A stretch of DNA of 37,347 nt. Source: Pseudomonadota bacterium. Its GTDB lineage: Bacteria > Pseudomonadota > Gammaproteobacteria > Competibacterales > Competibacteraceae. The stretch covers positions 1 through 37,347 of the forward strand of contig JAUPTV010000056.1 in NCBI GenBank assembly GCA_030917925.1, read 5' to 3'. The position numbers and the translations under genes are program-made. Each line of letters begins with the position of its first letter. The stretch's first letter is position 1. Shown piece after piece: positions 98 through 15,479 of the stretch. The notes beneath the pieces are model-generated. The model worked only from the letters and a program-made list of their open reading frames with translations. It did no database searches and was not told the origin of the DNA.

Positions 98-1174
98 TCA
101 AAAGACCGGGAACTGCTGATAAATTTGCCAGTTTACGACGTTGGTCAATAGCGCCCAACGAACACCGGCATAGGCAGCATAGGAGGTCGCTTGAAAAATT
201 TGCTTGTCGCGCAAGGCGGCACCCAGGCGCTTGGCTTCGATGACCAAGGCATCAATACCGCCTGGCGCTAAAACATAATCTGCGACCCGCCCTTGAATCT
301 TCTGCTCGGTCTTGATTTCGTTCAAGGCATAGCCGAGGACATCTTGCAGAATGCGATCCAGCAATAGCCGACTTTGGCTTTCATTCGGGCTGTCCTGCAT
401 CGCCCGCTTTAACAGCGGTGAGAACATGCGGTAACGAGTTTTGATGTCCTCCACCTGCGTAGCCAGGACATCTTGCAATGAGCGCCGACGGCGTCGTTTT
501 AGGCCGTCAGTGGCCGATAACTCTTCCTCAGCGTCCTTGTCCAAGGTCAGCGTCAGGGATGAAAACGCATCGTCAGCGACCACCACATGGGCGCTCGGTG
601 AGTCTTCATCGGCAACCAATACGCCAAAATGTGCGGCCAGCGCCCGCAAACCACCGGCGAACCCTTGCCCAACCGCCCGGAATTTCCAACTCTCGCGGTG
701 GCGGTAGAGTTCGGCCACGATGATCGCGGTTTCCGCGCCCAGTTCGCCACTGCTCCGGTAGTGCATCAGTTCCTGACCACTGGCGGAGTTAACCGCCCGC
801 GCCTGTATCCAGGACACCGCGCCGAAGGTCGCGTTATGGGTGTTGGTATCCAGCGTCAAGCAAAAGGCCAGGCGCTGCACGTCATAGGGCAAAATAGGCA
901 GGCTCACAACAAAGCCGTCGCGGTCGTCGGGAGTCCGTTCTACCGCTGGAATCCGATACACCGCGCCGCTGGCGTCGGTTTCCTGGTTGTAGAACACAAA
1001 ATCCTGGTCATCACGCACTACACCGGACGCATTGAGCAAGAACAAACTGGCGTCGATCTCAATTTGCGGTGTGGTGGCAGGCACTTCCCAGTTCAGGCCA
1101 ATAAAAACCGTTTGCGCCGTAGGATCGACTTGGGCAAGGGCAGCATTGCCACCTTGGGAGAGGGAAAGGGTCAT
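98..1174 (-). CDS. TerD-domain protein fused to a PD-(D/E)XK (HsdR_N-like) nuclease domain
   Basis: Residues about 1-190 look like a TerD domain: an N-terminal LSLSQGGNAAL, a VFIGLNWEV strand, and later GAETAIIVAELYRHRESWKF, the conserved TerD end region. TerD proteins are Ca-binding proteins of tellurite-resistance and stress systems. An Arg-rich linker (KRRRRRS) follows. The last ~110 residues resemble the N-terminal nuclease domain of type I restriction HsdR: Asp299 in ADYVL, then Glu313-Ala-Lys315 in VIEAKR, and a Gln-containing helix QIFQATSYAA. These are the expected PD-(D/E)XK residues, so it is probably an active DNase. I chose the ATG at 1174 because it aligns with usual TerD starts. 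A TTG two codons upstream (1180) is better spaced from an AGAAG and is also possible. It lies 171 bp after the Hsp70-like gene on the same strand, so it may be the last visible operon member or a separate unit. Confidence 0.8.
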   Translation of the reverse strand: MTLSLSQGGNAALAQVDPTAQTVFIGLNWEVPATTPQIEIDASLFLLNASGVVRDDQDFVFYNQETDASGAVYRIPAVERTPDDRDGFVVSLPILPYDVQRLAFCLTLDTNTHNATFGAVSWIQARAVNSASGQELMHYRSSGELGAETAIIVAELYRHRESWKFRAVGQGFAGGLRALAAHFGVLVADEDSPSAHVVVADDAFSSLTLTLDKDAEEELSATDGLKRRRRRSLQDVLATQVEDIKTRYRMFSPLLKRAMQDSPNESQSRLLLDRILQDVLGYALNEIKTEQKIQGRVADYVLAPGGIDALVIEAKRLGAALRDKQIFQATSYAAYAGVRWALLTNVVNWQIYQQFPVF

Positions 1175-1345
1175 GGTCAACAGTCTAGCTTCTTAATCAT
1201 TATTGGATTTTCTTAAAGGATTCTTGTGGATTTTAGTGGAGTTAATCACGCCAATGTTGGTTTAAACAGGCCAAACAACTTTTAAAATTAGAAGTTAGTC
1301 ATTTTATCTAAATGAGATGGAATTGACTATACAATTAGAAGAATT

Positions 1346-3808
1346 TTATTCATCATCTTCTCCGGCTGGAGGAATATCAATAATTGTGGTTCTGCCGTCA
1401 AATTCGGTAATATGTTTTTTTAATTTTATAATATTATTTTCTAGATCTTCGTTAAGAGCACCTGATATTAATGAAATTTCAAGCAATTTTAGTAGCTCTT
1501 TTGCTCTTTGGCTATTGATAATCTTTGGACTTTTTATATGTAGAAAATCTCGATACTGATCATGCATCCGATGTCTTAAAATAAACGCACTTAAACGTAT
1601 TGCTAATTTAAAAGGATTCCTGTACTTACCATTATTAACTTGCCACTTCAGAGCATAAATCATGGCATCTGCAAGCGAATCAGCTAATCTTGGATCAAGA
1701 ATTTTACCTGCATTTTCTCGGTAGGCGAGCGCATCGCCGGCAGCCTTAACAACATACCATGAAAGGTTATTTCCATCCCGATGCGCTTTACGGTAGCGGC
1801 GTTCACAATACTTGAATAAATCAATCAAATCCTGTTCACTGCTGAAAACTTTACCTGCATACATGACTAATCTTGACATGAATAATCTTGAACTGATATC
1901 TGGTGAACTTACGACTCGTCGATAGTAGCCGATAATCGCTTCCGGGCAACCAGTATAAAGTGTTGCTCCCAAACGGGCTAGTTGTTCAATATGGTTTATA
2001 TTCCTGTTCCTTGCAGTATTAGCAGTAATAAAGTCTTGTTTAATTTTTTCAAGAAATATGTTAAATTCTTCTACAACATCCAAGTTAATTCCCGTAGGCA
2101 GATGGCCTTCCGAATCAACAGCAGTGTAAATGTATTTATCTGGATCAATACCTCCTGTTAGGACAAATGGACTGATTCGTGTGCCAACGTATCCGCGTGT
2201 ACTCAAATGCTTTTTTTCGATAGCGCTATCGTAATAGCGATCTCTGATTGGGATCGTATTGATATTCCGCATTGTGGCTAATATATCAGTTTTCTCCCAA
2301 ATCAAACGGTGCGCATATTGCGGCAAAGTATCTGGATATCCACCAAAATTTAGACCAGCTAGAATTTGTTCGCGTGTTCGATAATCTACAGCCATTGCCG
2401 CCCAATCTAGCAGGATTGGCACATTACCCAATGCACCTCGAACCTCGGGACAAATTTCAACTCGTGCGTAGCCTTGAGCAGGCATTTGGGTAACATGCAG
2501 ACTAATCTTTACTTCACCTTCGGGTGATAGCGTGATTTCACTACACCGGGCCGTCTGTTCATCTTCCTTCAACAAGTAGAAAATAAGATTTTTAGCCTCT
2601 TTATCGATTTGATAACGATCAGCCAGTGTATTAGAATAAGTTTTTCCACCTTCAACGCGATCATTTTTATCAATTAATGCAGCAAAGACATGTTCGCCGC
2701 TGCGCAGCACATTAATTTCAAGCATCGGCAGGAAATCATAATAAGTAATCTGCCCTTTTTGTTGGCGCTCTGCACAAATAGCCCCACCTCGCGCCACCAA
2801 ACCCGCCGTTGTCGGTACCGCAATAACATGGGCAGCAGATAGAGGCGCGATGAGAACTTTAATGAAGTCTAATAACCGTGTAGCCTCTCTCAATTGAGGT
2901 TTAATGGATGCATGCGCTAGTGGACCTTCAATCAAAATCACGGAAGCCTGCCGCAGCGCCGACTGATCTTCTTTCAAGAGCTTCTGAACGGTTGCAGAAA
3001 GTGCTTTGGCTAATTCACCCTGTAAGTTGGAGACCCCACCGACCAATCGCCAACCACTGGGTGATTGAGTATCTGGCAACAGATCGCATTCAGCAGGATG
3101 GCCAAGGAGCGCATTCCAGGCCCAGGCGCTGGCCCACAACAGGCGTTGATCGGTAATGCCCATTTCGGCAGCAAGCAGGATCGGCAACTCACGGTTTGAG
3201 TACGGATACAGCTTTCGGAGTCCTTCTCGCCGCCGCACCGGAACCAGGGTTAGCTGCGCATCCTGTTCCACACACTCCAAATCCAATTCACTAACCGCAA
3301 TTCCCTCGGGTAGAAGTTGCAGGATACAGGCGCGTTTCCCTTGCAGATCGAGCAGTTGCTTAGGGTTCAAGTCTTCACCCCATCCCAATAATGCCGCCAC
3401 CGGACGCCATAACAGGCGGGCGTTGACTCCACACTGCGATGCTCCACTGAGTAATCGATCTCGGGCGCGTTCATTGAATGTTGGTATATCGGGTACGGCA
3501 ATAACACAACTACGATTTCCTTTCGGCAACAGACTATGGAGATGTTGCCCCATCTGGCGGGGCGCTTCGGGGTCGGCGCTGTCCAGTTCTAGCGCTCGCA
3601 GGAGTTCTAATATGCTGGTGCGGCATCCCACTGTCTCTGCCAGACGGGGACGGCCAAAGGGCGACAAGATCGCTTCCTCGCCTGTGAGTATTCCTTGCGG
3701 TAAATCGGTGATAACTATAGGTGGAACGGGTGCATGGTGCAGCTTTTCATCAGGATAAGCAACGGTATCGAGTACACCGTTTAAATCAATGCCGATAGCG
3801 GTATTCAT
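1346..3808 (-). CDS. Hsp70/DnaK-like ATPase of a CoCoNuT-type defence operon
   Basis: This 820-residue protein has an actin/Hsp70-type ATPase fold. The phosphate-1 motif is AIGIDLNGVLD at the N terminus. VIAVPDIPTFNERARDRLL followed by RLLWRPVAALLGWG matches the DnaK stretch with the VPA...NEPTAAALAYG pattern. VILIEGPLAHASIKPQLRE fits the adenosine motif, and GLVARGGAICA fits the DnaK VA.GAA stretch just before the substrate domain. The next ~120 residues look like the beta substrate-binding domain; the helical C-terminal ~300 residues I do not recognise. Its start overlaps the stop of the McrC-like gene by ATGA, so the two are translationally coupled. Hsp70 homologues predicted to bind RNA are a published component of CoCoNuT systems. 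I infer that role here; the chaperone-like fold is what I can see. Confidence 0.75.
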   Translation of the reverse strand: MNTAIGIDLNGVLDTVAYPDEKLHHAPVPPIVITDLPQGILTGEEAILSPFGRPRLAETVGCRTSILELLRALELDSADPEAPRQMGQHLHSLLPKGNRSCVIAVPDIPTFNERARDRLLSGASQCGVNARLLWRPVAALLGWGEDLNPKQLLDLQGKRACILQLLPEGIAVSELDLECVEQDAQLTLVPVRRREGLRKLYPYSNRELPILLAAEMGITDQRLLWASAWAWNALLGHPAECDLLPDTQSPSGWRLVGGVSNLQGELAKALSATVQKLLKEDQSALRQASVILIEGPLAHASIKPQLREATRLLDFIKVLIAPLSAAHVIAVPTTAGLVARGGAICAERQQKGQITYYDFLPMLEINVLRSGEHVFAALIDKNDRVEGGKTYSNTLADRYQIDKEAKNLIFYLLKEDEQTARCSEITLSPEGEVKISLHVTQMPAQGYARVEICPEVRGALGNVPILLDWAAMAVDYRTREQILAGLNFGGYPDTLPQYAHRLIWEKTDILATMRNINTIPIRDRYYDSAIEKKHLSTRGYVGTRISPFVLTGGIDPDKYIYTAVDSEGHLPTGINLDVVEEFNIFLEKIKQDFITANTARNRNINHIEQLARLGATLYTGCPEAIIGYYRRVVSSPDISSRLFMSRLVMYAGKVFSSEQDLIDLFKYCERRYRKAHRDGNNLSWYVVKAAGDALAYRENAGKILDPRLADSLADAMIYALKWQVNNGKYRNPFKLAIRLSAFILRHRMHDQYRDFLHIKSPKIINSQRAKELLKLLEISLISGALNEDLENNIIKLKKHITEFDGRTTIIDIPPAGEDDE

Positions 3809-5505
3809 GCGAATAACCTGTCAATATTATCCTTGAGAATCGCATCAAACCAGATAAATGTTTCACTGATTCTGTCTGGATCGACATCCAGAGTGATGCC
3901 ATAAACAAGAGTCCCTTGTTCTGCATCATTCGCACTCATATTAGTAAAATCAGGCGTTGAACGAATGACTAAACCGCGTGCATTGACTCTTTGTCCAGTC
4001 CGTCTTCTTTCTTGGGAAAGCACATCTTGTAATGCTTCGTCAGCAGAGCGAACAAGATCAATCAGCGGAAGTGGCTCAGTCGCCGTACCATGTACACCCC
4101 AGACACACAGACTACCACTATACCCATTATCAAAATCAGTCAATCGCACAAATACCACACAGCCGAGTCCATAAACCCAAGAGTCTGGCCGTGAATATCG
4201 ATCCTTATCTTCATTTGGATCATCTGGAGGTACGTCTGTTATGTCGAGAATCTCCACAACTAGAAGACGATTACGGAACGTCAGCATAAATACCGCCAAC
4301 AGCGGATAGGTATCTGACCAGCGCCCATTAGTTTGTCCAGAATTTATATGTAGCGGTGACAATGCAATACGCTTCTTTAAGGGCAGTTGATCGATAGCGA
4401 CCACCACGGCTAATCGCGTAAAATCAGCCCATAAGCGGCGTTGCCAGCGCCAAAGGTCATCTTTTCGCTGCTCGCCGCTGAGAATTTCGCGGTAGGCATT
4501 CCAGATAATGCGGTAGCGGGAATCGTGTTGTAGAACATAATTAGGGTTTATTGGATGTGTGGGGCGGAGAATACCAGCATCATCTAAATCGCGATAATGT
4601 CGGCGGCATAAAGAGCGGTAACGGTTAACGAGTTTAACCCGTTCGCTATTACCATATCGTTTATTTGCTTGTGAGTAAGCACGCGCCTCATTTGCGCTCA
4701 GTCGTAATAAATCTTTCAGTACCCGATTTTCAAGTGTGTCGAGATTTTCTTCGCGGGTCACCCCGAATAAACGCTGGCGCGGTCCAGCTTTTTCGGCCAC
4801 TGAACGCCCTGGCTGGCGGATCAGCCATTCAATACACGCATTGTCGAGTTCCTGAATCCGGTCAATAGCCATCAATTCTCGGGTTCTTTTTAATACACGC
4901 CGGGGATACGAAGCCGTTTCATCAATACGGCGGGGAAGCCGCTCCGCATGTTCAACAATTAGATCAATTGGCGCTTCTTCACCACGCACTTTTTTTGTAA
5001 GCCAAGCTGCTTGAAGACGATCCCACCCAGTCATTGATGCGCCCCAAAATTCTGCTGGATCGTGTTTGGATTCTGCTTCGCGAATACGGGCCAGAACCTG
5101 CAAGATGAAACCATGCATCATATCGGCAGGACTCGCATCTTGCGTACTGTTATGGGTACCACATGGTCTTAGCAGGTGGTTGTCAATTTTCAGAGTAACG
5201 CTAAGAATCTGCCCGTTTGCGTGAATCTCAAGCCCTACTTCCTGTTCCTGATCTTGTGCGGCAATAGGCAATGCACATAAACGAAAAGGACCATCGAACC
5301 ACGGAAATTCACCTCCTTCAGATTGTGGACGCCAGTTGCGACAAGTAAAACGTAATTCTGCCATTTTCGGTAGAGCCAATATTGCGCCATAACGGCCATC
5401 CACTGTGATGGTATCGCCATTTCGCAATGGATGGTTGACATTAAAACCAGCAACAGGGGTAGTTGCATAAAGCCCCCAAGGCACTGTCAAAATGAAAGGG
5501 ATCAT
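3805..5505 (-). CDS. McrC-like protein with DUF2357 region (CoCoNuT partner subunit)
   Basis: The 566-residue product carries the DUF2357 signature around residues 253-270, ENLDTLENRVLKDLL, seen in McrC-related partners of McrB motors. The N-terminal ~75 residues are beta-rich with many Gly and could be a small barrel; published CoCoNuT McrC homologues carry SmpB-like OB folds, but I cannot prove this one by eye. In normal McrC the C-terminal part is a PD-(D/E)XK nuclease. Here the matching region (LAVFMLTFRNRLLVVEILDITD) has no evident D...D/E-X-K set, so the nuclease may be inactive or too diverged to see. The gene overlaps the McrB-like gene upstream and the Hsp70-like gene downstream by 4 bp each, which implies fixed stoichiometry. 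Confidence 0.75.
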   Translation of the reverse strand: MIPFILTVPWGLYATTPVAGFNVNHPLRNGDTITVDGRYGAILALPKMAELRFTCRNWRPQSEGGEFPWFDGPFRLCALPIAAQDQEQEVGLEIHANGQILSVTLKIDNHLLRPCGTHNSTQDASPADMMHGFILQVLARIREAESKHDPAEFWGASMTGWDRLQAAWLTKKVRGEEAPIDLIVEHAERLPRRIDETASYPRRVLKRTRELMAIDRIQELDNACIEWLIRQPGRSVAEKAGPRQRLFGVTREENLDTLENRVLKDLLRLSANEARAYSQANKRYGNSERVKLVNRYRSLCRRHYRDLDDAGILRPTHPINPNYVLQHDSRYRIIWNAYREILSGEQRKDDLWRWQRRLWADFTRLAVVVAIDQLPLKKRIALSPLHINSGQTNGRWSDTYPLLAVFMLTFRNRLLVVEILDITDVPPDDPNEDKDRYSRPDSWVYGLGCVVFVRLTDFDNGYSGSLCVWGVHGTATEPLPLIDLVRSADEALQDVLSQERRRTGQRVNARGLVIRSTPDFTNMSANDAEQGTLVYGITLDVDPDRISETFIWFDAILKDNIDRLFA

Positions 5506-8393
5506 TTCTCATCACGCCTTACGCCCATCCATACGAATGGTCGACCACTGCCATCATCACGCACCGCCTTGTTAAATGCATCAGCCAGTTGTTGATCATT
5601 GAGCTTGTTTGATATCAAATCCTTAATCCGATCCAAGTGAGGTCGCAGGATTTCATTGTCCAGCTCAATACCACGCAATTTTGGCAGGATACGTTGCGCC
5701 AGCAGATCGGCGAAGGCGAATTGAGCGCTTTCTGTCTTGCTATGAATGACTGGATAGTTCGCAACATAGGCCAGGATTGCCTGATTAACCCGATGCGCGA
5801 ATGGCCTGCCTAACCCATCAAGTGCATCATTCAGTTCTTTGATCCATTCCCCAATAGAATTGCCAATGCTTGGATCAATCGTGTCACGTTGCCATTGATG
5901 CCAAACCTTTGCGGATAAATAACCCGTTGCTGGGCATCCAGCTTCATCTCTCAATGGTTTGTCCATTAGTTTTGCCGGTCTGGAGAAGCGCAGCAAATTA
6001 GCACGGTCAAGAACTTTATCAGAAAGTGTCTGGGTTGATTCATCCTCATTCATCGTTCCAACAAACAGCAGGTTATGGCCGGGATAGATACGCCGTGATT
6101 CGCTGCTGCCAATATCCAGAATGATAGTTGAGTTGCGAATATGGTCTGGATTAATATTTCCAGGTTCAGGGCGACCTTCAAGTTGGCTTAAAAACTCGCT
6201 GAAATAGTATTCGACCCGGGCAAGATTCATCTCGTCAAGTAGCACCAACATCAAGCGATCCTGGTACTTTTCCGCGAGATCTGGCCAATGATAAGGATCA
6301 AAGTGGACCAAGGCCCGCGCTAATTCAGTTGCCTTGTAGCGACCCTCCAAGTAGTTATAGAACCCGAGCATATCTTGTGGACTATCCCATCGCGGCTGTA
6401 CCGGAATCTTCAGAAAGTGGATACCCATAGCTTCAGCATAGCGCCGGGGAAGTTGGCTCTTGCCGGTTCCGGAGATACCAGCTAATACAGTAAGTGGACT
6501 AATTGCAGCAGTTTTAAGCGCAGTATGAAAAGCATAAAGAGTGCGTTTTGGGAAATACAAGCCCAGCTTTTCCATATGTTCAAGAACTTTGTCGAGTGCT
6601 TCCGCCTCAGTAACTTTATGCTGTGCATGGGGTAATACTGCAATTTGTTGCCCGTCTCTTTGCTCGACCAGGCAAGCGGGTGGGGACAGCAGATTAGCAA
6701 TCTTTTCATCGACAGGTAGTGGATCACCCGGTTGTGTTCCTGCTAAGTCCTTGCGAGCTTTAGCCACTTCTGATTCAATAACGGCGCGGGTGGCATACAA
6801 ACCAGTGACCTCGTTCTCAAGTTCCTGCTGTCGTTCGCGTCCGGTGATGATTTCCCTGCGTATATTTTCGAGTTCCGCTGACAGTGGTTCGCGTTTTTCT
6901 TGCAGTTCCTCCAACTCGGCTTGTACTGTCTCAACTGTTTCTCGGTTAGTAGTGATAGCCGCCTCGATATTGGCCCGCAAAGCCCGCAGATTAGCCAATT
7001 CCTCTTGATGTTCCTGCGATTGATGGCGCACCGTGGTTAATTCTTGGCGAGCGCCCTCTAGCTCTTGGTAAGCCCTTTCCCGTTCACCTTCAAGTTGTTG
7101 CAGATTTTCTAACTCAATTTGCACGGACTCCAACTCCGCTTTAGTAGTTGCAGTCGTTGCTTCAATGCTGGCGCGAACAAATCGCAAATTGGCTAATTCA
7201 TCGTCAAGTTCTTGCCTTTGCTGGCGAGTAGTCTTGAGGTCTTGACAAACGGTTTCCAGTTCTTCACGGGTTTTATCAAGTTCTGTTGCCAGCGGATCAG
7301 ACTGTTCTTGTAGTCGTAATAATTCAGCCTGTAACGACTCTATCTCTGCACGCTTAGTAGCTAAGACTGCTTCATTACTAACGCATATTGTGTTTAAACG
7401 CGCAATATCTTCTGCTTGTTTTCGTAGATAATTTTCGTTTTCAGCCAGTTGATGCTGAATGGATTGCAGTTGGAGAACAGCCAGTGCCTGATCCTGCCGC
7501 GCTGGTTCCAACTCCGCCTGTAGTTTGATTAATTCGGCACGGGCAGTCTCGGTAGCGACCTCAGTTGCACCTCGCACAGTACGCCAGTGGGCTAATTCAT
7601 CTTCAAGTTCCTGCCCTTTCTGGCGATTAGCCCTGAGTTCCTGGTGAGTGGTTTCCAGTTCCTGACGGGTCTTTTCAAGTTTATCTGCCAAGGGTTCATG
7701 CGCTTCCTGCAACTGCGCTAACTCTTGTTGCAACTGGATTTTTTTATCCTCAATCCGCTGGGTTTCCGCCAAGGCTTTTTCCCGATCGGCAGTGAAGCGC
7801 TCGGTTTCAACACGAGCCACCACAAGCTGACGGTTAGTATATTCCAATTCTCCACGCGCTTCGGTAAGGCGGGTACGCGCCTCATGCTCGGTAATAGCAA
7901 GGGCTTCGATTTCTGCCTTTCGTTCATCGAATAAAGCTATTTGTGCCTGTGCCCGCTCTGCTGCGATGACCAATTCGCTATACTGCGTGCGGCGTTCAAC
8001 CAAATCACGCAAAAGATCGGCTTGCTGAATGCGCAACTCAGTCAGTTCATCACGAACCTTTAAAATTTCGGCTTTGCGTCCTTCAAGAGCAATCAGTTCA
8101 TTTTTTAGGTCTTCACTTTCTGCATTAGTAGCGTCACGATGAGCAATAATGACGCTAAGTTCAGCCTTGAGGGCATCCCGTTGCCCTCGCTGTTTTTCAG
8201 ACTCCGCTTCCACACGTTCGAGTTCTTCACGCCCATTCTTCAATCGTTCTGCGACGTTCTCAAGAGCTGTTGCGGCGGGCATTCGCCGCAAGTGGGCGCT
8301 GTAGCGCATACCGGCTAGTAGCGCTATGATCACGCTGACCATGCCGGCGAATGCGCCAGCAGAAGCCATCCAAACCATCATCTGCGTATCCAT
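5502..8393 (-). CDS. Membrane-anchored coiled coil fused to McrB-type AAA+ NTPase
   Basis: Residues about 9-30 (WMASAGAFAGMVSVIIALLAG) form one hydrophobic segment, so the protein is probably anchored in the inner membrane. Residues about 42-565 are almost unbroken heptad-type coiled coil rich in Glu, Gln, Leu and Arg, with repeated blocks such as RQELDDELANLR. The C-terminal third is an McrB-like motor: Walker A GISGTGKS (639-646), Walker B VLLDEMN with Asp720-Glu721, and the sensor segment GTMNEDES (779-786) followed by LDRANLLRF. McrB motors use GTP; the nucleotide used here is not known. Fusion of long coiled coils to an McrB homologue is the defining trait of CoCoNuTs (the CnuB subunit). 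The DUF2357 gene follows with a 4-bp overlap. Confidence 0.85.
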   Translation of the reverse strand: MDTQMMVWMASAGAFAGMVSVIIALLAGMRYSAHLRRMPAATALENVAERLKNGREELERVEAESEKQRGQRDALKAELSVIIAHRDATNAESEDLKNELIALEGRKAEILKVRDELTELRIQQADLLRDLVERRTQYSELVIAAERAQAQIALFDERKAEIEALAITEHEARTRLTEARGELEYTNRQLVVARVETERFTADREKALAETQRIEDKKIQLQQELAQLQEAHEPLADKLEKTRQELETTHQELRANRQKGQELEDELAHWRTVRGATEVATETARAELIKLQAELEPARQDQALAVLQLQSIQHQLAENENYLRKQAEDIARLNTICVSNEAVLATKRAEIESLQAELLRLQEQSDPLATELDKTREELETVCQDLKTTRQQRQELDDELANLRFVRASIEATTATTKAELESVQIELENLQQLEGERERAYQELEGARQELTTVRHQSQEHQEELANLRALRANIEAAITTNRETVETVQAELEELQEKREPLSAELENIRREIITGRERQQELENEVTGLYATRAVIESEVAKARKDLAGTQPGDPLPVDEKIANLLSPPACLVEQRDGQQIAVLPHAQHKVTEAEALDKVLEHMEKLGLYFPKRTLYAFHTALKTAAISPLTVLAGISGTGKSQLPRRYAEAMGIHFLKIPVQPRWDSPQDMLGFYNYLEGRYKATELARALVHFDPYHWPDLAEKYQDRLMLVLLDEMNLARVEYYFSEFLSQLEGRPEPGNINPDHIRNSTIILDIGSSESRRIYPGHNLLFVGTMNEDESTQTLSDKVLDRANLLRFSRPAKLMDKPLRDEAGCPATGYLSAKVWHQWQRDTIDPSIGNSIGEWIKELNDALDGLGRPFAHRVNQAILAYVANYPVIHSKTESAQFAFADLLAQRILPKLRGIELDNEILRPHLDRIKDLISNKLNDQQLADAFNKAVRDDGSGRPFVWMGVRRDEK

Positions 8394-8411
8394 GAGGGAC
8401 AGTTCCTGAAG

Positions 8412-10127
8412 TTAGCGCCCACTAACACCTGAATTAGCGGCAGGGGCAAGACGTGTTGAGGGGGCAGATTGTAGGGACGCGAGTTCGATACGAAGGCGCT
8501 CGATCTGTTCACGAAGAGCGTTCAACGTACCGGTGTCCTCTTGTAGACGTTTACGCAAGGCGTCTGCTTCCTTGCCCCGAGGTTCCAACGCCGCAACCTC
8601 GCGCTCCAATTCAGCCCGGCGCAGGTTCAACCGCTCCAGATCAATCATCAGTGCTTCCCGCTTGGCTTTAGCCTCATTGAGTTGACCCTGCGCCCGTTCC
8701 CCTTCAGCCGTGACCGTGGCCAGTTCCGCCCGCATGGTCTCCAGTTGTTTGCCTGTCGTATTGAGCCTTGCCAATTCCGTATCCAAAGCTATCTTTTTGG
8801 CTGCTAGGTCCCGATTGTTCTGTTCAGCAGTAGCCACATCGCGCTCCAGAGCAGTGCGGCGCAATCCCAGTCGATCCAACTCACTAACAAGGTTTGTTCG
8901 CTGACTTTGTACCTGCTCCAATCCAGCATTGGCGTTCGCCAAATCGGCTCGAGTGGTCTCCAGTTGTTTGCTGACAGTGCCTAACTTCGCCATGTCGGCT
9001 TCCAGGGCAGTCTTTTGGATGGCGAGTTGGCGGAGGTTCTGTTCGGCAGCCGCCACGGTGCTTTCCGCTTCTTTCTGTCGGGTCAACAACTTTTCAAGCG
9101 CCGCCTTGGCTTCGGCGGTTTCACGGATGGCTCCAGCAGAGGCGTCCTTTTGCGTCTTTAACCGGGCGACTTCCGCAGACAGGGCGGTTTGCTGACCTTG
9201 GGTTTCGGCCAGTTGCCCTTGGGCCGTTTTCAGGGCATCGCGGGCAGTAGTCAGGGTTGCGTTGATTTGCGCCTGTTCCTGTCGGGCGACCTCGGCGTTG
9301 CGCCGGGCTTCGGCAACGGTGCGGGTATCCTGTTCCAATTGAACGCGCACCTGATCGAGTTTCTTGATCTCGTCACCCAGCCGTTGCGCTTCGCTTTGGA
9401 GGCGGGTCTGTTCCTTGCCCGTCGCCGCGACCGTATTGGTCAACTGAGTTTCCTGGCCGCGCAACTCAGCGACACGCTGCTCGACGACTTTCTGGTCTTG
9501 CAGCAGTTGCCCGGCGCGTTGCTCGGCGGTCTTTTGCTGGCTGATCGCCTCATTGCGAGCCTGCTCAGCTTCGGTCTGTCGCACTTTAGCCGTTCGCTCG
9601 GCCTCAGTAGCCGACAGACGGCGATTCTCGGTATCCACCGCCTGCTTTTCCGCGCTATCCCGGCGCTGTTCGAGATCGGCAATACGGGTTTCGGCGGCTT
9701 GGGTCTCCGCCAACAGTCCATCCCGACGCTTCGCTAAGGAATCCCGCTCTGCCCGACTATCGGCCAATTCCCGGCGCAGACTCGCGGCCTCATCGCGTAA
9801 TTTCGCCGCATTGGCCTGTTCGGTATCGAGTATGGTGTGCGTTCGGCGCAACTCGGTCACGGCTTGATCCAGTTGAACCCGCTCAGCGTTCAGCGCCTGC
9901 AAGTTGGCTTTAGTCACCTCACGCTGTTCACGCCAAGTCTGCCGTTCCAACCCATCGCTTAGGACGCCAAACAGCACTGCGCCAAACCCGCCCAGGGTCA
10001 GCGTGAAGGCTAACCAGAGCGCAACTTGCCAACGCCGGTGCCAAGCGGGCGGCGTACCGGCCAACGGCAACAGCCGGTCAGCGGCAGAGGATTCAGAGTT
10101 CGGCGAGGATTCGCTCGACGCAAGCAT
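8412..10127 (-). CDS. Single-pass membrane coiled-coil protein
   Basis: The 571-residue protein has one transmembrane segment at about residues 34-55 (VALWLAFTLTLGGFGAVLFG) after a short N-terminal tail, then roughly 490 residues of coiled coil with regular blocks such as ATAEQNNRDLAAKKIALDTE. The C-terminal tail is low complexity. No enzymatic motif is visible. An SD GGGAG seven bases before the ATG supports this start even though it lies inside the end of the helicase gene (35-bp overlap). The next gene starts 18 bp after its stop. The rod length is close to that of the neighbouring McrB fusion, so the two may assemble side by side; that is inference. It could act as a membrane tether or scaffold of the defence complex. 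Confidence 0.75.
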   Translation of the reverse strand: MLASSESSPNSESSAADRLLPLAGTPPAWHRRWQVALWLAFTLTLGGFGAVLFGVLSDGLERQTWREQREVTKANLQALNAERVQLDQAVTELRRTHTILDTEQANAAKLRDEAASLRRELADSRAERDSLAKRRDGLLAETQAAETRIADLEQRRDSAEKQAVDTENRRLSATEAERTAKVRQTEAEQARNEAISQQKTAEQRAGQLLQDQKVVEQRVAELRGQETQLTNTVAATGKEQTRLQSEAQRLGDEIKKLDQVRVQLEQDTRTVAEARRNAEVARQEQAQINATLTTARDALKTAQGQLAETQGQQTALSAEVARLKTQKDASAGAIRETAEAKAALEKLLTRQKEAESTVAAAEQNLRQLAIQKTALEADMAKLGTVSKQLETTRADLANANAGLEQVQSQRTNLVSELDRLGLRRTALERDVATAEQNNRDLAAKKIALDTELARLNTTGKQLETMRAELATVTAEGERAQGQLNEAKAKREALMIDLERLNLRRAELEREVAALEPRGKEADALRKRLQEDTGTLNALREQIERLRIELASLQSAPSTRLAPAANSGVSGR

Positions 10128-13100
10128 TCATATTCTCCCGGAGTTCATAGACCCAGAAGCGCACGACAGTCCAGCCGAGCGCCCGCAGTTGGTGATCCCG
10201 CCATAGGTCAGCCATTTTGCGCCGACCGTCCGGGTCACGATGAAACCAATCGCCATCCACCTCGATGTCGAGGTGGCGGTCGCCCCGAATCAACGCTAGA
10301 TCCAGCCGACGACCGGCGATGGGGTATTGGGTAATCGTTTCAATGCCACGCGCCGCCAGCGCCTGCCACAAGCGCTCTTCCCAAGGGGAATCAAATTGAG
10401 CAGTGGTGGTTGGTCGTTGCGGTTGGCGGCGAGCCAGCAGGGTTTCGAGATAGGGAATCCCGCACTGTGCCGCGTAGTCCAGATCGCCGAACACATGGCA
10501 AATGGCGCGGGCGCGACTGATGGCAACGTTGATCAAATTGCCGGTCTCGCGCAGGAACTGCCGCGCCTGTTCCGGCATCTCCGACCCGACGCACAGGCTA
10601 AACAGCATCACATCGCGGGCGTCGCCTTGAAAGCCATGTGCGGTATGGACTTCCAACCGGGTGCTGGCAACCTGATCCACCGGCAGCACCCGCTCCACCT
10701 GATCGCGCAACCGGTTCGCCTGCTCACGAAACGGAGTCACCACGCCGATCGTGCCCGCAAACCCGCCCGGAGCCAGTAACCGGCTGAGTTCGGCCAGGAT
10801 CGCGTCGATCTCGGCGGGTGCCCAGCAGCCAGTACGAGCCGGCTGAAGGGAGCCGCGCACCTCAGTCCAGTGAAAGCCAGCAGTTTTGCCGGGCGGTGGG
10901 CGCAACTGCCGTGCATCCGTGAGCGGGCGCAAGCGATGACCGTAGAAGGTCTCGCTGATGTAGTCGGCAATGTCATCATGGCAGCGAAAGTGATCGCGCA
11001 GCAGGTGATGATCGCCGGACGCAGCGGCGGCGAAGTGAAACAAACTGTTGGCGGAAAAGGTGAACTGGCCAATCCCTGGCACTCGCAACCCGGCAGCGCG
11101 CAAGGCGTCGGCTTCCCATTCCGGGCGAACCTGGGTGATATGGGTCAGTTGCGCCGGATCGCCGATGATGATCGCCCGCCGTGCCCGCGCCAATAGTGGC
11201 AAGGCTGAGGCGATGTCGCATTGAGCGGCTTCGTCCAGCACCACGTAATCGAATAATCCCGGTACCAGGGGAATCCGGCTGGCCGCGCCGAGATTGGAGG
11301 CCGCCCATAATGGAAACTGGTCGAGGATCACGCTGCGATGGGCGAACCACCGGTCACGAGCGCGAGCCGCACCGGCTGCGCCTTCATTCCGCAACAGCGC
11401 CAAGTCACCCCGCAATGCCGTCAGCGCCTGTCGGTGTTCGGGCGCACATTCAGTCAGTGCTTCGCTCAGTTCCAGCAGGCAGGCGCGAGCCGAGGTTTGA
11501 ATCTGTTCGCTCAGAGCCACCGGATCCGGCATGGTCTCGGTAGTGGGTGGTTGCCGAATCGCGGTTTCGAGCCGTGTCCGACCCTCCCGCAGGCGTTGGA
11601 GAGTGCGCAGATCATCCACTCGCCGCTCATGCAGCGCGAGCGTCGCCGCACTGGGTGCCGCCAAGCCTAACCGCGCCCAGTCCAACGCGAGTCGGCGCAT
11701 CCGTCGCAATCGCCAGAACCGCCGCCAGGGAGTGAACCATGGCGGCCAACCGGAGGTTGCTGGGGGGTCGGGCGGCGGTAGGGGATTAGGCAGCGGCGCG
11801 GTAGCGTCCAGCCCCATCGCCGTTTCCAGATCGCCAATCGCGGTTTCCAGCCGGCCCAGTTCATCCGCCTGTTCCGCAACACCCTGAGCCTGATCAATGG
11901 CCGTAGCGCGGGCGGCGTCCAACCGGGCGAGTGCGCTACAGGAGACGGCAAAGCGTTCTCGCCGCCCTGAAACGCCGGGGCGAGCCAGAATCGCATCCAT
12001 CGCCCGCTCAAAGCTGAATCCTTCCCCACCGTCGCGGGTGTTGGCGCGGATCAACAGTGGGTGGCGCTCCACCACGTCCGCGAACCGATCCACTACGGCG
12101 TCAATCGCCTGATGATTCCGGCTGGCGAATAACACGCTGCGCCCTGCCAAAGCGGCGCTGGCCATCAGCGCCACCGCAACCTGGGACTTGCCGGTGCCGG
12201 GCGGGCCAGTGACCACGGTTAAGGGCCGGTTGAGGCCATCACGCACGGCGCGTAACTGATCCTCGCCCAACGGCAGCGGCTCCAGCACCGACAGTGGTGC
12301 ATCCGCGGGTTCCACACCCTGGGTTGCGCCGCCAAAAAAAGCAGCCAGCGCGGTCTGCGCCAGTTCGGCATCGGACCATTGCGCCAAATCCAGCAAATCC
12401 CGCACGGTGCGCCGGGCAAACTGGAGATCGCTGGATAGAAACAGCGCCAATCCGCCGTAGACACCCGCCAGACCACCACAGTCTAAGGCCGGTAACGGGT
12501 GAGTCAGGTCGAGAGGCGTCCGCAACTCGGTAGGAACCGCGCCGGCCAACCGCTCGGCGAATGTTCGCCAGTCTACAAACGAACCGGTTTGCCACACTTC
12601 GTCATCGGCGTTGACTTCAAGCGCATCGAGCAATTCACGCACTCGCCGCCCGCGCTGACGCTGGCCACGCACCCAGGCCCATTCAATGGCGGGTGTTGCT
12701 GCGCTCAGTTCCAAGCGCAAGGTCTCGGCATCCAGCACCCAGTCGACCGCCACCGTCGCTACAGGAACCACAAACGGCGGGCGGGTCGCATCGTTGGAAT
12801 GCACCAAGGCAACCGGAAAAGCGAGATGAAGCGGCTCACGCCCCCGTCGGGCTAATGCGGTGAGAAACGTCGGCGGTAATAAAGCCCGCGCCACATTGAG
12901 GATGGCATATTCACCTTCACCGGGCCACCACCGCCCGCGAGGAGCCAGGAACAGGAACAATTCGCCGTAGCGGCGGGCATCGCCCAGTAACAACGCCCGT
13001 TCGTTGCGGGCCAATGCCTCGCGATAGTAGGGCAGGAGTCGGCGCAACAGCGCCCAGGACGGTTCAAGCCGCTCAGTGGCTTCAAGGGTCGGTGTGGCAG

Positions 13101-13443
13101 GCGGTGCGAGATGCGAGTCCCCGACAGTAGCGGGGATGGCGGTCAACAACGGGCCACTGGTTAAGCGGGCTGACCCCGCACCCTCCAGCGCGTCCCGGTT
13201 GGCGGCGGATCGTGTCAGATGGGGCGAAGGGATGGAGTAGGGGGACCAGCGCCGCAACGCGCCGATTTGCGTCAGATTAGCACGCTGTAAATCCAACAAA
13301 ACGGCGGCGACCTTATCTACTCCGGGTCGCTGTCCATCTTGGCAAAGCCGACTTCGTACTTCTTCAAGATAAAGCCCTTCGGGATGCCGCTCGATCACCG
13401 TGAGGATTTGGGTCGCAAGCGAACCGTGCTGTCCGTAGCTCAT
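10093..13443 (-). CDS. SF1 (UPF1-like) helicase fused to a C-terminal Vsr/DUF559-type nuclease
   Basis: Domains in order: residues about 1-70 look like a small winged-helix domain (LATQILTVIERHPEGLYLEEV). A ~300-residue region I do not recognise follows. A split SF1 helicase comes next, with Walker A GPPGTGKS (413-420), a long Arg-rich insertion, Walker B VVLDEAAQ (DEAA 737-740), IIIGDPAQL (motif III) and TAHGFQGDARDVMLFSLCVG, ending with NVAISRAR. The last ~100 residues are a PD-(D/E)XK domain of Vsr/DUF559 type: SPWEERLWQAL, Asp1048 in RRLDLAL, Glu1061 and Asp1063 in DIEVDG, and the typical end LRALGWTVVRFWVYEL. UPF1-like helicases fused to nucleases accompany CoCoNuT systems. There is no strong SD before the ATG, but a 19-codon reading frame ends on it with an ATGA overlap, which could supply coupling. 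Confidence 0.88.
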   Translation of the reverse strand: MSYGQHGSLATQILTVIERHPEGLYLEEVRSRLCQDGQRPGVDKVAAVLLDLQRANLTQIGALRRWSPYSIPSPHLTRSAANRDALEGAGSARLTSGPLLTAIPATVGDSHLAPPATPTLEATERLEPSWALLRRLLPYYREALARNERALLLGDARRYGELFLFLAPRGRWWPGEGEYAILNVARALLPPTFLTALARRGREPLHLAFPVALVHSNDATRPPFVVPVATVAVDWVLDAETLRLELSAATPAIEWAWVRGQRQRGRRVRELLDALEVNADDEVWQTGSFVDWRTFAERLAGAVPTELRTPLDLTHPLPALDCGGLAGVYGGLALFLSSDLQFARRTVRDLLDLAQWSDAELAQTALAAFFGGATQGVEPADAPLSVLEPLPLGEDQLRAVRDGLNRPLTVVTGPPGTGKSQVAVALMASAALAGRSVLFASRNHQAIDAVVDRFADVVERHPLLIRANTRDGGEGFSFERAMDAILARPGVSGRRERFAVSCSALARLDAARATAIDQAQGVAEQADELGRLETAIGDLETAMGLDATAPLPNPLPPPDPPATSGWPPWFTPWRRFWRLRRMRRLALDWARLGLAAPSAATLALHERRVDDLRTLQRLREGRTRLETAIRQPPTTETMPDPVALSEQIQTSARACLLELSEALTECAPEHRQALTALRGDLALLRNEGAAGAARARDRWFAHRSVILDQFPLWAASNLGAASRIPLVPGLFDYVVLDEAAQCDIASALPLLARARRAIIIGDPAQLTHITQVRPEWEADALRAAGLRVPGIGQFTFSANSLFHFAAAASGDHHLLRDHFRCHDDIADYISETFYGHRLRPLTDARQLRPPPGKTAGFHWTEVRGSLQPARTGCWAPAEIDAILAELSRLLAPGGFAGTIGVVTPFREQANRLRDQVERVLPVDQVASTRLEVHTAHGFQGDARDVMLFSLCVGSEMPEQARQFLRETGNLINVAISRARAICHVFGDLDYAAQCGIPYLETLLARRQPQRPTTTAQFDSPWEERLWQALAARGIETITQYPIAGRRLDLALIRGDRHLDIEVDGDWFHRDPDGRRKMADLWRDHQLRALGWTVVRFWVYELRENMNACVERILAEL

Positions 13444-13499
13444 GGATCAATCTGACGGGTATCGACGACAACACGGCTCAACATTATGGCGTTCTTCAT
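13440..13499 (-). CDS. Possible 19-codon leader ORF coupled to the helicase gene
   Basis: An ATG at 13499 opens a 19-codon frame (MKNAIMLSRVV...) that stops with TGA overlapping the helicase ATG as ATGA. A purine stretch (AGAGAAT) lies nine bases upstream of it. The helicase gene lacks a good SD of its own, so translation of this short frame could deliver ribosomes to it. It may equally be a leftover of a deleted gene between the restriction remnant and the helicase. No similarity is claimed. Confidence 0.3.
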   Translation of the reverse strand: MKNAIMLSRVVVDTRQIDP

Positions 13500-13534
13500 A
13501 ATTTATTCTCTGATGAATTGATCGTGAGCTATCT

Positions 13535-14167
13535 CTACCCCACCCCAAACACTTTCAACACTTCGTCAATGAGGAACGCATCGGAAAATCGTTGATCTTG
13601 GCGATTCACCAGCTTGTTCAACGCCTGCCACGCGATCAACATGCCCATCACGACCGTCTTACCGCTCCCGGTCGCCATTTTGGCGGCATAGCGGGGTAAC
13701 GGCGTATGGCTGTCCGGGGTGGCTCCCGCGTTGGCTTGCTTGAAGCGTCCCAGTATGGAAGTCCCATAGTTGGCGTCTTGCTTCGGCGCAATCTCGGTCA
13801 AATAAATCAGCGTTTCCACCGCTTCAATCTGACAGAAGAACAATCGCCGCTCGCGGTCTAGCCGGGTCCAGTACTCCAGCAAGCGCCGGGTTGTGGCTGT
13901 GGTGTAAGGCCGTCCGGCTTGCCGCCAATACGCCACACGCTCCCGCAAGTCGTTAATCAGCTTGTTCTCTTCGGCGCGGTGCTGAATCGCCAGATCCAGC
14001 GTTTTCTGAACGGTCTTCAGCTTCGGCTGGGCGATCGGGATGAAATAGGTACTGCGCCGCCGACCTGGCACAATCTCGTCAGTGATACCGTTATCGTCAA
14101 AGCGGAAATGCCGCTTCGGTTCCTCAAAGGGCGAATTGATAATGGGGTTTTCAATCAAATCAGCCAT
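13535..14167 (-). pseudogene. Truncated type III restriction (Res-like) helicase subunit, internal deletion
   Basis: The first ~200 residues read like the N terminus of a type III restriction endonuclease Res subunit: ENPIINSPFEEPKRHFRFD, GITDEIVPGRRRSTYF, and the helicase motif I segment YAAKMATGSGKTVVMGMLIAW followed by RFSDAFLI. Intact family members run to roughly 900-1000 residues. Here FSDAFLI joins directly to a ten-residue tail DEVLKVFGVG and a stop, so motifs II-VI and the nuclease are missing. The simplest reading is an in-frame deletion that joined the start to the extreme C terminus. The start has an AGGA seven bases upstream and sits downstream of a sigma54-like promoter, so the fragment may still be expressed and serve as the operon's first cistron. 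It has no helicase or nuclease activity that I could predict. Confidence 0.7.
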
Positions 14168-14398: not shown

Positions 14399-14995
14399 TG
14401 CGCCCTTTTCCTCAAAGCCCGTTGACGGTGAGTCTTGCTACCGTTCTATATGGCAAACAGTGTAGCGCATCACTTTCAGGTTTTTGAGCCGTATTTGCAC
14501 ATTTTCCACCATAAAACTCACGAAGCCCGCCAACAAGTGCCCTGTCCAAGACCGGTCTGTAGGTTGAATTCCGCGAAAATGATGAAGTGAAGCGCTTCGG
14601 GGCGTACTGGCACCGTGAACAACGGCAAGGGTACGTTTCGGCAGGCCGGAATTTAACATCTTTTGCCGGCTGGCTGCGGGATTGGATACGGTCCGTCAAT
14701 AAAATCGCCCGTTTCGCCGGTAGTGGGTTTCCAATCTGATTGACACCCGCCCCGCACTGTCCTAACGTAGCGCCACTATCAATCACAGCGGTCATCGCCC
14801 GTTATAGCGGTGGTTCACGATCACACATCCATACATGGACGTGAGAGCGCGGATCGTCTGTTTTACCCCACGGGCGTGGTCGATAGGGGGAAATAAGGCG
14901 CGGCTTGCCGTGGATGAATAACTCCAACCGACTGTGATCGGTAGTTGAGACCATGCCGCCCTCAACCTGCGCGGCATTGTACGGAAACCGCCGCC
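14399..14995. other. Decayed intergenic stretch without a convincing gene
   Basis: About 600 bp between the palindromes and the ribbon-helix-helix gene. Several overlapping short frames exist on the minus strand (for example one ending near 14802 with HGKPRLISPYRPRPWGK), but none has a good ribosome site or a family I recognise. Together with the neighbouring ribbon-helix-helix gene and the tRNA scar, this looks like eroded mobile-element DNA. Confidence 0.4.
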
Positions 14996-15223: not shown

Positions 15224-15479
15224 CGTACTGAGCGAATAGGTCGCTCAATACGAGTTGTTGCCGTATCCGGTAGGTTCTGAGACCATAACCCGCTTGCGGG
15301 GATATGGCGGAACACTTGAACGACCTGTCGGAGTTGCTGGAGCAGCAGGTAGGCCGCGTGACGTGATCGTGACGGAACCCAGTCACGTTCAGAGCTTTCC
15401 TGGCCATTCGTGACAAATAGGCGTGGGGCAAATGGCGCTAAGTAATTGTTTAATCTATACCAGTGAGTAACACACTGGA
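15224..15479. other. Element end next to the tRNA scar
   Basis: No complete gene is visible. A short plus frame from 15304 (MAEHLNDLSELLEQQ...) ends after 20 codons and could be the tail of a lost gene, but it cannot be assigned. This stretch directly abuts the partial tRNA-Pro. Confidence 0.35.

What the first reader, a model, noticed from the sequence alone, without database searches (positions are those of the whole stretch)
98..14167. CoCoNuT-type anti-phage operon
Seen: on one strand, with 4-35-bp overlaps between several genes, lie an SF1 helicase-Vsr nuclease, two membrane coiled coils (one fused to an McrB motor), an McrC/DUF2357 protein and an Hsp70-like ATPase. Known: Bell, Makarova, Koonin and colleagues defined CoCoNuTs by coiled-coil McrB/McrC pairs with tandem nucleases and RNA-binding Hsp70 homologues, often in superoperons with other restriction genes. 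Inference: this is such a system, perhaps a variant with a TerD-nuclease member.
Basis: partly seen in the sequence, partly recalled or inferred. Interest (0 to 1): 0.85.

Follow-up and report, generated by a model that had tools for sequence, protein, structure and literature searches.

The report
Membrane-anchored Type III-B CoCoNuT defence operon

Summary
Genes at 1346-13443 (minus strand) are CnuH-CnuA-CnuB-CnuC-CnuD of a Type III-B CoCoNuT (Bell et al. 2024). Tests met: NxD motif; a 12-row III-B clade in the GTPase tree (99/98) beside III-C and III-A; SF1 helicase fused to a Vsr-type nuclease; separate coiled-coil CnuA; DUF2357 CnuC without ExK; CnuD with Hsp70 fold (DnaK, Z about 24). 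The order is kept in 13 of 13 loci; dN/dS is 0.13-0.26.

Corrections: the TerD-nuclease (98-1180) and the ORF at 13535-14167 are not members. They are truncated ends of a res-methylase-TIR-TerD-nuclease operon, intact in a relative, whose middle 6.9 kb the cassette replaces.

Addition: CnuA and CnuB each start with one predicted transmembrane helix in 13 of 13 III-B loci (CnuB also in the one III-C-like locus); 18 other McrB-type proteins show none. CnuB's body is predicted cytoplasmic; CnuA's side is ambiguous. The texts read do not mention this for III-B. Anti-phage activity and RNA targeting remain untested. Rating: new member of a known kind, with an overlooked trait of the subtype.

The parts
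10093..13443 (-). cnuH: SF1 (UPF1-like) helicase, 1116 aa, fused C-terminal Vsr/MTES_1575 nuclease
   Evidence: AAA_12 6e-22, AAA_11 9.8e-18, MTES_1575 5.2e-13; Walker A, Walker B and nuclease residues invariant in 10 of 10 aligned
10096..10380 (-). Vsr-type nuclease domain of CnuH (residues 1022-1116), motif LD...EVDG...H intact
   Evidence: R-x-LD-x-A ... E-x-DG found in 13 of 13
8412..10127 (-). cnuA: one predicted transmembrane helix then about 500 residues of coiled coil, 571 aa
   Evidence: overlaps cnuH by 35 nt
9969..10025 (-). predicted transmembrane helix of CnuA (residues 35-53)
   Evidence: Kyte-Doolittle mean 1.98 over 19 residues
5502..8393 (-). cnuB: one predicted transmembrane helix, long coiled coil, McrB-type GTPase domain, 963 aa
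8313..8369 (-). predicted transmembrane helix of CnuB (residues 9-27)
   Evidence: Kyte-Doolittle mean 2.11
5508..6602 (-). McrB-type GTPase domain of CnuB (residues 598-962)
   Evidence: profile match 598-962; tree
6042..6050 (-). NxD GTPase signature (N782-E-D784)
   Evidence: N and D invariant in 10 of 10
3805..5505 (-). cnuC: DUF2357/McrC homologue with degenerate PD-(D/E)xK domain, 566 aa
   Evidence: DUF2357 6.6e-9; McrBC entries top the second-look list, Z 8.0-8.9; no ExK in 13 loci at the place judged by eye
1346..3808 (-). cnuD: Hsp70-like NBD and SBD-beta plus C-terminal helical region, 820 aa
   Evidence: AlphaFold2 pLDDT 75.3; DnaK Foldseek E 1.4e-13; DnaK Z 24.1-24.5 over 410-430 residues
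13535..14167 (-). NOT a member: first 200 codons of a BPTD_3080-type (type III-like) restriction gene; similarity breaks off at 13567
   Evidence: NF046055 1.9e-66 over 5-200 of 970; 89% DNA identity to L103 over 14233-13567
98..1180 (-). NOT a member: TerD domain fused to HSDR_N-like nuclease, 360 aa, 3'-truncated (relatives 453-454 aa)
   Evidence: TerD 2.8e-50, HSDR_N_2 1e-5; 87% DNA identity to L103 over 118-1205; lengths in relatives

Best explanation
It is a complete Type III-B CoCoNuT (genes H-A-B-C-D) that sits inside the remains of a type III-like restriction operon in a gammaproteobacterium of the Competibacteraceae group. Most likely mechanism: CnuB, tied to the inner membrane by its N-terminal helix, forms an NxD-type GTPase ring that CnuC (DUF2357) stimulates; CnuD, an Hsp70-like protein, binds the foreign or aberrant target, probably RNA; this licenses CnuH to pull the nucleic acid through its helicase core to the fused Vsr-type nuclease; CnuA, a second membrane-anchored coiled coil, scaffolds or senses at the membrane. 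Shown here: gene content, order, conserved catalytic residues, predicted Hsp70 fold, clade membership, predicted membrane helices, purifying selection. Inferred from homology and Bell et al. 2024: assembly, target choice, defence. Inferred here: action at the membrane.
For: Domains. NxD motif and Walker A invariant in 10 of 10. Tree of 29 GTPase domains: III-B one clade, 12 rows, 99/98; III-C-like row its sister 95/92; III-A next 100/99. Hsp70 fold of CnuD. McrBC entries rank first for CnuC, and the ExK lysine is absent in 13 of 13. Gene order in 13 of 13 loci; H, C and D of all 13 pass profiles (most of these rows built the profiles, L092, L095 and L102 are independent). Membrane helices in CnuA 13 of 13 and CnuB 13 of 13; 18 other McrB-type proteins score at most 1.32. 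dN/dS 0.128, 0.159, 0.262, 0.237, 0.209 for H, A, B, C, D. Definition of Type III-B: PMC11090510 sections 7-9, read in full.
Against: No experiment on a Type I-III CoCoNuT was seen in the papers read. The N-terminal winged helix described for III-B CnuH gave no Pfam hit (0 families at E 0.5), and its OB-fold was not tested. Reference types in the tree were assigned by gene content here, not by the authors' labels, and the tree's outgroup did not form one side of a branch. CnuA of the non-gammaproteobacterial loci is assigned by position and layout: it has no clear sequence similarity to the window's CnuA. The system is rare in the samples: the CnuD profile hit 2 of 369 genomes of the window's class, 2 of 398 of the phylum and 2 of 385 of G661's class, one of these last a weak match (7.4e-6) at a DnaK/HscA-like gene; at most 2 candidates a genome were scored, so misses are possible. 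Two viral contigs carry a CnuH-like helicase-nuclease without recognisable A-D genes (L114, L115). Membrane helices rest on hydropathy only.
Confidence: 0.72

Rival explanations
1. DNA-targeting reading: same identity, but the target is DNA. CnuB/CnuC work like McrBC on modified DNA and the CnuH helicase-Vsr nuclease cuts DNA, with no RNA step.
For: Vsr-type PD-(D/E)xK nucleases are mostly DNA enzymes (general knowledge). The only intact nuclease motif recognised in the five genes is that of CnuH. Restriction genes lie close to several loci: HsdR ends 12 nt before cnuH in L017; BPTD_3080 and Shedu in L027; a DNA methylase near L009's cnuH and in L018.
Against: CnuC lacks the catalytic lysine in 13 of 13 loci; Hsp70-like CnuD has no obvious role in DNA recognition; Bell et al. 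argue for RNA on other grounds (PMC11090510 section 9).
Confidence: 0.35
2. Envelope-sensor reading: CnuA is an N-in/C-out protein whose coiled coil lies in the periplasm and reports envelope damage or phage adsorption to the cytoplasmic CnuB-CnuC-CnuD-CnuH machine.
For: Net charge (15 residues each side) before minus after the helix is positive for CnuA in 13 of 13 loci (+1 to +5) and negative (11) or zero (2) for CnuB.
Against: Counting K+R alone, CnuA shows no bias: more on the N side in 5, equal in 4, more on the C side in 4 of 13, whereas CnuB has more on the C side in 13 of 13. About 500 residues of one straight helix would be roughly 75 nm, longer than a periplasm is wide, so it would have to fold back. 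Some of the 13 are near copies (L027, L092) and start codons were chosen by longest ORF.
Confidence: 0.2
3. The TerD-nuclease is a sixth member of a CoCoNuT variant.
For: Same strand, next gene, 165 nt downstream of cnuD. TerD is described as a possible nucleotide-derivative sensor (one passage, PMC7159879).
Against: No TerD-nuclease in the other 12 III-B loci; eight of these show 3.6-11.4 kb past cnuD, the other four only 2, 565, 828 and 1298 bases. Full-length matches in 4 other genomes of the same family, none with a CnuD match. Intact res-methylase-TIR-TerD-nuclease operon in L103 whose two ends match both flanks of the cassette. The window's copy lacks about 100 C-terminal residues.
Confidence: 0.04
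4. It is a CoCoPALM or another NxD McrBC with a membrane/coiled-coil McrB, not a CoCoNuT.
For: Bell et al. describe CoCoPALM GTPases fused to an FtsB-like transmembrane plus coiled-coil domain (PMC11090510 section 7); CnuB here has that layout.
Against: No FtsB-type hit for CnuB at E 0.05. No signal-peptidase or pilus gene among the ORFs scanned in the window. H, A, C and D are all present and the GTPase groups with III-C and III-A. No sequence labelled CoCoPALM was available for the tree.
Confidence: 0.03

Closest known systems
Type III-B CoCoNuT (Bell et al. 2024, PMC11090510)
   Same: CnuH with fused Vsr nuclease, separate coiled-coil CnuA, coiled-coil NxD CnuB, CnuC with inactivated PD-(D/E)xK, separate Hsp70-like CnuD, no TerY-P genes seen. 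Six of the 13 loci found here are named alphaproteobacterial records, the group in which the paper says III-B is mainly found.
   Different: This copy and its four nearest relatives are gammaproteobacterial. Membrane helices at the start of CnuA and CnuB are not mentioned for III-B in the main text (all six 'transmembrane' passages seen); figures and supplements not seen. It is wedged into a broken restriction operon.
Type III-C CoCoNuT (Synechocystis pSYSX, L093)
   Same: Sister row in the GTPase tree; CnuB also starts with a hydrophobic helix (2.39).
   Different: Phospholipase D-type gene instead of a helicase-fused Vsr. Assigned III-C by gene content (NxD GTPase, DUF2357, phospholipase D gene); its 800-aa gene did not match the CnuD profile here. 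No separate CnuA gene recognised.
Type III-A CoCoNuT (L087, L088, L094)
   Same: NxD GTPase with a long N-terminal region, SF1-type AAA gene, DUF2357.
   Different: TerY-P-type genes present and long DUF2357 proteins of 1104-1348 aa; no membrane helix in CnuB (scores -0.52, -0.24, 0.05).
CoCoPALM (Bell et al. 2024)
   Same: McrB GTPase with an N-terminal membrane helix plus coiled coil (from the paper's text).
   Different: Pilus-assembly-linked; not represented in the tree here.
Canonical McrBC (Type IV restriction)
   Same: McrB/McrC pair; McrBC structures are the best matches of CnuC.
   Different: NxD instead of NxxD, no catalytic lysine in CnuC, three additional genes.

Membership tests
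Type III-B CoCoNuT | NxD GTPase signature in CnuB | tested here: met
   MNED; N and D invariant in 10 of 10
Type III-B CoCoNuT | GTPase domain inside the CoCoNuT III branch | tested here: met
   12 III-B rows 99/98, plus III-C 95/92, plus III-A 100/99; types assigned by gene content, published labels not available, outgroup not clean
Type III-B CoCoNuT | CnuB with long N-terminal coiled coil | tested here: met
   3.5-residue periodicity z 9.9 over residues 46-560; SMC/coiled-coil profile hits below cut-off
Type III-B CoCoNuT | separate coiled-coil protein CnuA without other recognised domain | tested here: met
   z 10.3; only coiled-coil-type Pfam hits below cut-off; it does have a membrane helix
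Type III-B CoCoNuT | UPF1-like SF1 helicase CnuH with fused Vsr nuclease | tested here: met
   AAA_11, AAA_12, MTES_1575 above cut-off; IGHMBP2-family model TIGR00376 5.1e-21, below that model's curated cut-off
Type III-B CoCoNuT | N-terminal winged helix on CnuH | tested here: inconclusive
   first 77 residues: 0 Pfam families at E 0.5; no fold predicted
Type III-B CoCoNuT | OB-fold and helical insertion in CnuH | not tested
Type III-B CoCoNuT | CnuC with DUF2357 and inactivated PD-(D/E)xK | tested here: met
   DUF2357 6.6e-9; McrBC chain Z 8.9, rmsd 8.4, 235 residues, and restriction enzyme BsoBI Z 7.1; no ExK in 13 of 13, place judged by eye
Type III-B CoCoNuT | Ig-like N-terminal beta-sandwich on CnuC | tested here: inconclusive
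   model residues 1-111 are mostly strands and match Ig/filamin and other beta folds at Z 5-6.8 only
Type III-B CoCoNuT | separate Hsp70-like NBD/SBD protein CnuD | tested here: met
   DnaK E 1.4e-13; Z 24.5, rmsd 4.9, 410 residues, model 1-474 (an integrative DnaK model), crystal entry 7krv Z 24.1, rmsd 5.3
Type III-B CoCoNuT | HEAT-like repeats and coiled coil on CnuD | tested here: inconclusive
   C-terminal region is helical (576-801); only weak armadillo-type matches (E about 0.03)
Type III-B CoCoNuT | no TerY-P genes | tested here: met
   none among the ORFs scanned (not every short ORF was scanned); the contig ends 97 bases past the TerD gene
Type III-B CoCoNuT | antiviral activity, RNA as target | not testable with these tools
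   needs phage and biochemical assays
Canonical McrBC | NxxD GTPase motif | tested here: not met
   NxD
Canonical McrBC | McrC nuclease with catalytic ExK | tested here: not met
   0 of 13
CoCoPALM | FtsB-like fusion on the GTPase | tested here: inconclusive
   membrane helix plus coiled coil present, but no FtsB-type Pfam hit at E 0.05
CoCoPALM | linked signal-peptidase/pilus gene | tested here: not met
   none among scanned ORFs

The most novel reading that the evidence does not exclude
Type III-B (and III-C) CoCoNuTs are trans-envelope machines of the inner membrane: CnuB hangs a GTPase-coiled-coil arm into the cytoplasm while CnuA extends an oppositely oriented coiled coil on the other side, so that phage adsorption, DNA entry or envelope damage is sensed at the membrane and passed to an Hsp70-guided helicase-nuclease.
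Probability: 0.17. Interest if true: 0.78.

Novelty: new member of a known kind. Interest (0 to 1): 0.46.

Why it matters
Type I-III CoCoNuTs are predicted, not tested, in the papers read here. This locus is a compact five-gene III-B system in a gammaproteobacterial group, with intact catalytic residues and purifying selection. The conserved paired membrane helices set III-B (and the one III-C-like locus) apart from the three III-A loci seen and give a simple, testable question: do these systems work at the membrane, and on which side does CnuA lie? The replacement of the middle of a restriction operon by the cassette also documents how defence islands swap modules.

Tried and rejected
TerD-nuclease as a CoCoNuT member: rejected. 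The ORF at 13535-14167 as a member: rejected, it is a truncated res gene. A first guess of mine that 26803-34122 was a nuo operon was wrong: Pfam gives PTS components, a phosphomannomutase type and a mannose-1-phosphate guanylyltransferase type. Short repeats between the cassette's junctions: none of 9 bases or more, so no sign of how it was inserted. Promoter/terminator scan: 14 and 15 sites against 11.5 and 16.4 in shuffles, no information. Rfam at gathering threshold: only the two tRNAs. Plasmid search with CnuD: 2 weak hits; one (Rhizobium leguminosarum) is a full III-B operon, the other (Jannaschia) shows none of the other four genes. The weak hit in G802 looks like a DnaK/HscA-type gene and was dropped. 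L015 (C and D only, contig starts in C) was dropped from the 13-locus count. L083 and L086 (partial domains) were left out of the tree; in the helix control they are counted among the 18, although L086 begins near a contig end and its true start may be missing, and no NxD motif was extracted for L083 and L090. L102 was found after the tree and is not in it. III-C search in viral contigs found nothing. PADLOC gave a candidate class (PDC-M26A 6.1e-38) for CnuB and helicase classes for CnuH. Phage collection: 1 weak hit for CnuH. Paper searches for a membrane-bound CoCoNuT listed the CoCoNuT papers and works that looked unrelated by title; apart from PMC11090510 (abstract, sections 7-9, passages), PMC10542128, PMC12458937 and PMC7159879 (passages) I saw listings only. 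(TerD and restriction) was likewise a listing.
Full report
WHAT IS THERE. The window is the whole of contig C11 (37,347 bases) of a 4.2-Mb draft genome, 98.67% complete. From 16015 on, the ORFs scanned are ordinary chromosome: pnp, rpsO, truB, rbfA, infB, nusA and rimP types, then PTS, phosphomannomutase, mannose-1-phosphate guanylyltransferase and queG types. Between a tRNA-Ser (15843-15932) and the contig end lies the finding.

THE FIVE GENES. On the minus strand run five ORFs at 13443-10093, 10127-8412, 8393-5502, 5505-3805 and 3808-1346, with overlaps of 35, none (18-nt gap), 4 and 4 nt. Pfam gives an SF1 helicase with a C-terminal MTES_1575/DUF559 (Vsr-type) nuclease, two proteins with coiled-coil-type hits, and a DUF2357 protein; the fifth has no hit. 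Helicase Walker residues and the nuclease residues (LD, EVDG, H) are invariant in 10 of 10 aligned relatives. The third protein carries the shortened NxD GTPase signature (MNED), with N and D invariant in 10 of 10. The fifth was folded by AlphaFold2 from 9 sequences (pLDDT 75.3, pTM 0.59): it matches DnaK (Foldseek E 1.4e-13 with TM-score 0.39 and large rmsd over the whole chain; Z 24.5, rmsd 4.9, 410 residues over model 1-474, and Z 24.1 for entry 7krv). The fourth (pLDDT 73.8) has McrBC entries as its three best second-look matches (Z 8.0-8.9 with rmsd 8-11), suggestive rather than strong by itself, and lacks an ExK in 13 of 13 loci at the place that I judged by eye to be the catalytic one (alignments; extraction, whose pattern missed L011, which one search shows). 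Coiled coil was checked by hydrophobic periodicity: z 10.3 and 9.9 for the two rods, 1.0 for the GTPase domain.

MEMBERSHIP. Bell et al. 2024 (PMC11090510; abstract, sections 7, 8 and 9 read whole, passages of others; figures and supplements not seen) describe Type III-B by this set: CnuH with a Vsr nuclease fused directly to the helicase, a separate coiled-coil CnuA, CnuB, CnuC with an inactivated nuclease fold, and a separate Hsp70-like CnuD, without TerY-P. A tree of 29 GTPase domains puts the window with 11 other H-A-B-C-D loci in one clade (99/98), beside the III-C-like row of Synechocystis pSYSX (95/92), and these beside three III-A loci with TerY-P-type genes (100/99); the other 13 rows lie outside. 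The tool warned of long branches among those 13 and that the outgroup was not one side of a branch, so the root is not firm. Reference types were assigned here by gene content. Druantia I/II have since been counted as a fourth CoCoNuT type (passage in PMC12458937); they are not relevant to III-B placement and were not tested.

LINKAGE. Thirteen loci have H-A-B-C-D in the same order and strand: window, L011, L012 (D cut by the contig end), L013, L014, L016, L017, L018, L048, L027, L092, L095 (H split by an IS21-type pair) and L102, on an IMG/VR contig with a phage-type integrase nearby. H, C and D of all 13 pass profiles, though most of these rows built the profiles; L092, L095 and L102 did not. 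CnuA is similar in sequence only within groups (the five gammaproteobacterial ones; L027, L092, L095, L048 and L102; weakly or not at all for L016-L018), so outside the first group it is assigned by position and layout. L015, with only C and D because its contig begins in C, is not counted. All five genes are under purifying selection against L011 (dN/dS 0.13-0.26). The system is rare: the CnuD profile found 2 of 369 genomes of the class, 2 of 398 of the phylum and 2 of 385 of G661's class (unnamed, probably Alphaproteobacteria), the window's own genome being one in each of the first two and a weak DnaK/HscA-like hit one in the last; at most 2 candidates a genome were scored. Among 59 relatives 5 have it, own included.

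THE TWO OUTER GENES ARE NOT MEMBERS. In relative G024 (L103) an operon reads: BPTD_3080-type restriction gene (1022 aa), N6/N4 methylase (945 aa), TIR protein (320 aa), TerD-HSDR_N nuclease (454 aa). Window 14233-13567 is 89% identical to the start of that restriction gene with 65 bases before it, and window 1205-118 is 87% identical to that TerD gene, in the same order and orientation. The CoCoNuT fills the gap in place of 6.9 kb (L103 2751-9626). The cassette's similarity to L007 ends 8 bases before the cnuH start on one side and 33 codons before the cnuD end on the other. The rest of the restriction gene was not found elsewhere in this assembly: other matches are 34-41% identical, and the methylase's best match is 44%. 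The window's TerD gene stops at 360 aa where four relatives have 453-454. Among 59 relatives the full-length TerD-nuclease occurs in 5 and CnuD in 5, with the window's genome the only overlap, and none of the other 12 III-B loci holds one in the stretch available, which for L012, L017, L048 and L016 is only 2, 565, 828 and 1298 bases past cnuD.

MEMBRANE ANCHORS. CnuA and CnuB each have one strongly hydrophobic segment near the N-terminus in 13 of 13 loci (19-residue Kyte-Doolittle means 1.78-3.04 and 1.93-3.08). Of the 31 McrB-type proteins scored over about their first 150 residues, the 12 III-B and the one III-C-like exceed 1.9 and the other 18, three III-A among them, stay at 1.32 or below (NxD was read in 16 of these 18; L086 may lack its true start). 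Two CnuA-position proteins of I-B-like loci score 0.57 and 0.98. CnuB has more K+R after the helix than before it in 13 of 13, so its long part should be cytoplasmic. For CnuA the two measures disagree: net charge before minus after is positive in 13 of 13, which would put the coiled coil outside, but K+R alone is 5 for, 4 equal, 4 against, and a straight 500-residue helix would not fit across a periplasm. The 2024 paper's six uses of 'transmembrane' and the preprint's four do not concern III-B; the paper does describe a membrane/coiled-coil fusion for the related CoCoPALM group, which tempers the novelty.

MECHANISM. By analogy with McrBC and Bell et al., CnuB/CnuC form a GTPase motor, CnuD supplies target binding (RNA in the authors' view) and CnuH cuts. 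My addition is that the machine is tied to the inner membrane. Whether the target is RNA or DNA is open: the one intact nuclease is a Vsr type, and restriction genes lie close by in several loci (HsdR 12 nt before cnuH in L017; Shedu and BPTD_3080 in L027; methylases in L009 and L018).

VERDICT. A real, probably functional Type III-B CoCoNuT: new member of a known kind, with an apparently unreported trait of the subtype.

Noticed in passing
L103:8669-11015 (G024:C13), L052:5892-9647, window 98-1180: The TerD-HSDR_N nuclease lies directly behind a TIR gene in G024, and a TIR gene (with EAD7) lies about 1.6 kb from it in G029. Since TerD has been suggested to bind nucleotide derivatives (passage in PMC7159879), a Thoeris-like TIR-signal / TerD-sensor nuclease pair is conceivable; of the other two relatives, G020 has a methylase-Mrr protein next to it and G001 a GmrSD-type gene.
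   Followed up: partly
window 15480-15529: A stretch of about 50 bases with short strong matches in most relatives listed (96% to L052). By eye it is the 3' half of a tRNA, a possible attachment-site remnant beside tRNA-Ser(gga) 15843-15932; ARAGORN and Rfam do not call it.
   Followed up: partly
window 14945-15223 (+): Small ORF with a weak ribbon-helix-helix match (RHH_5 4e-4, below cut-off) in a region (about 14787-15224) that recurs at roughly 70-85% identity in several relatives and on contig C237 of the same genome; in G024, G020 and G029 it lies near restriction or TerD-nuclease genes.
   Followed up: partly
window 1346-5505: Synonymous divergence from L011 jumps from 0.27 in cnuC to 0.96 in cnuD, while the CnuB GTPase domain is 99% identical: the cassette looks mosaic, as after recombination.
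   Followed up: no
L095:3027-8677 (Rhizobium tropici plasmid): cnuH is interrupted by an IS21-type istA/istB pair; A, B, C and D remain open.
   Followed up: no
L102 / L113 (IMGVR_UViG_3300033183_000484): A complete III-B CoCoNuT on a contig filed as viral, near a phage-type integrase, a Toprim protein and an exonuclease.
   Followed up: partly
L114:3-2921, L115:1844-5287: CnuH-like helicase-nuclease genes (38-39% to ours over about 480 residues) without recognisable A, B, C or D on viral contigs.
   Followed up: no
downstream of cnuD in L007 and L008: The gene after cnuD varies: an AbiEii-type AAA protein in L007 and a Schlafen AlbA_2 protein in L008.
   Followed up: partly
window 35438-36469 (-): PemK/MazF-type toxin next to an HTH_17 protein and an HTH_3 protein, a likely toxin-antitoxin locus.
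   Followed up: no
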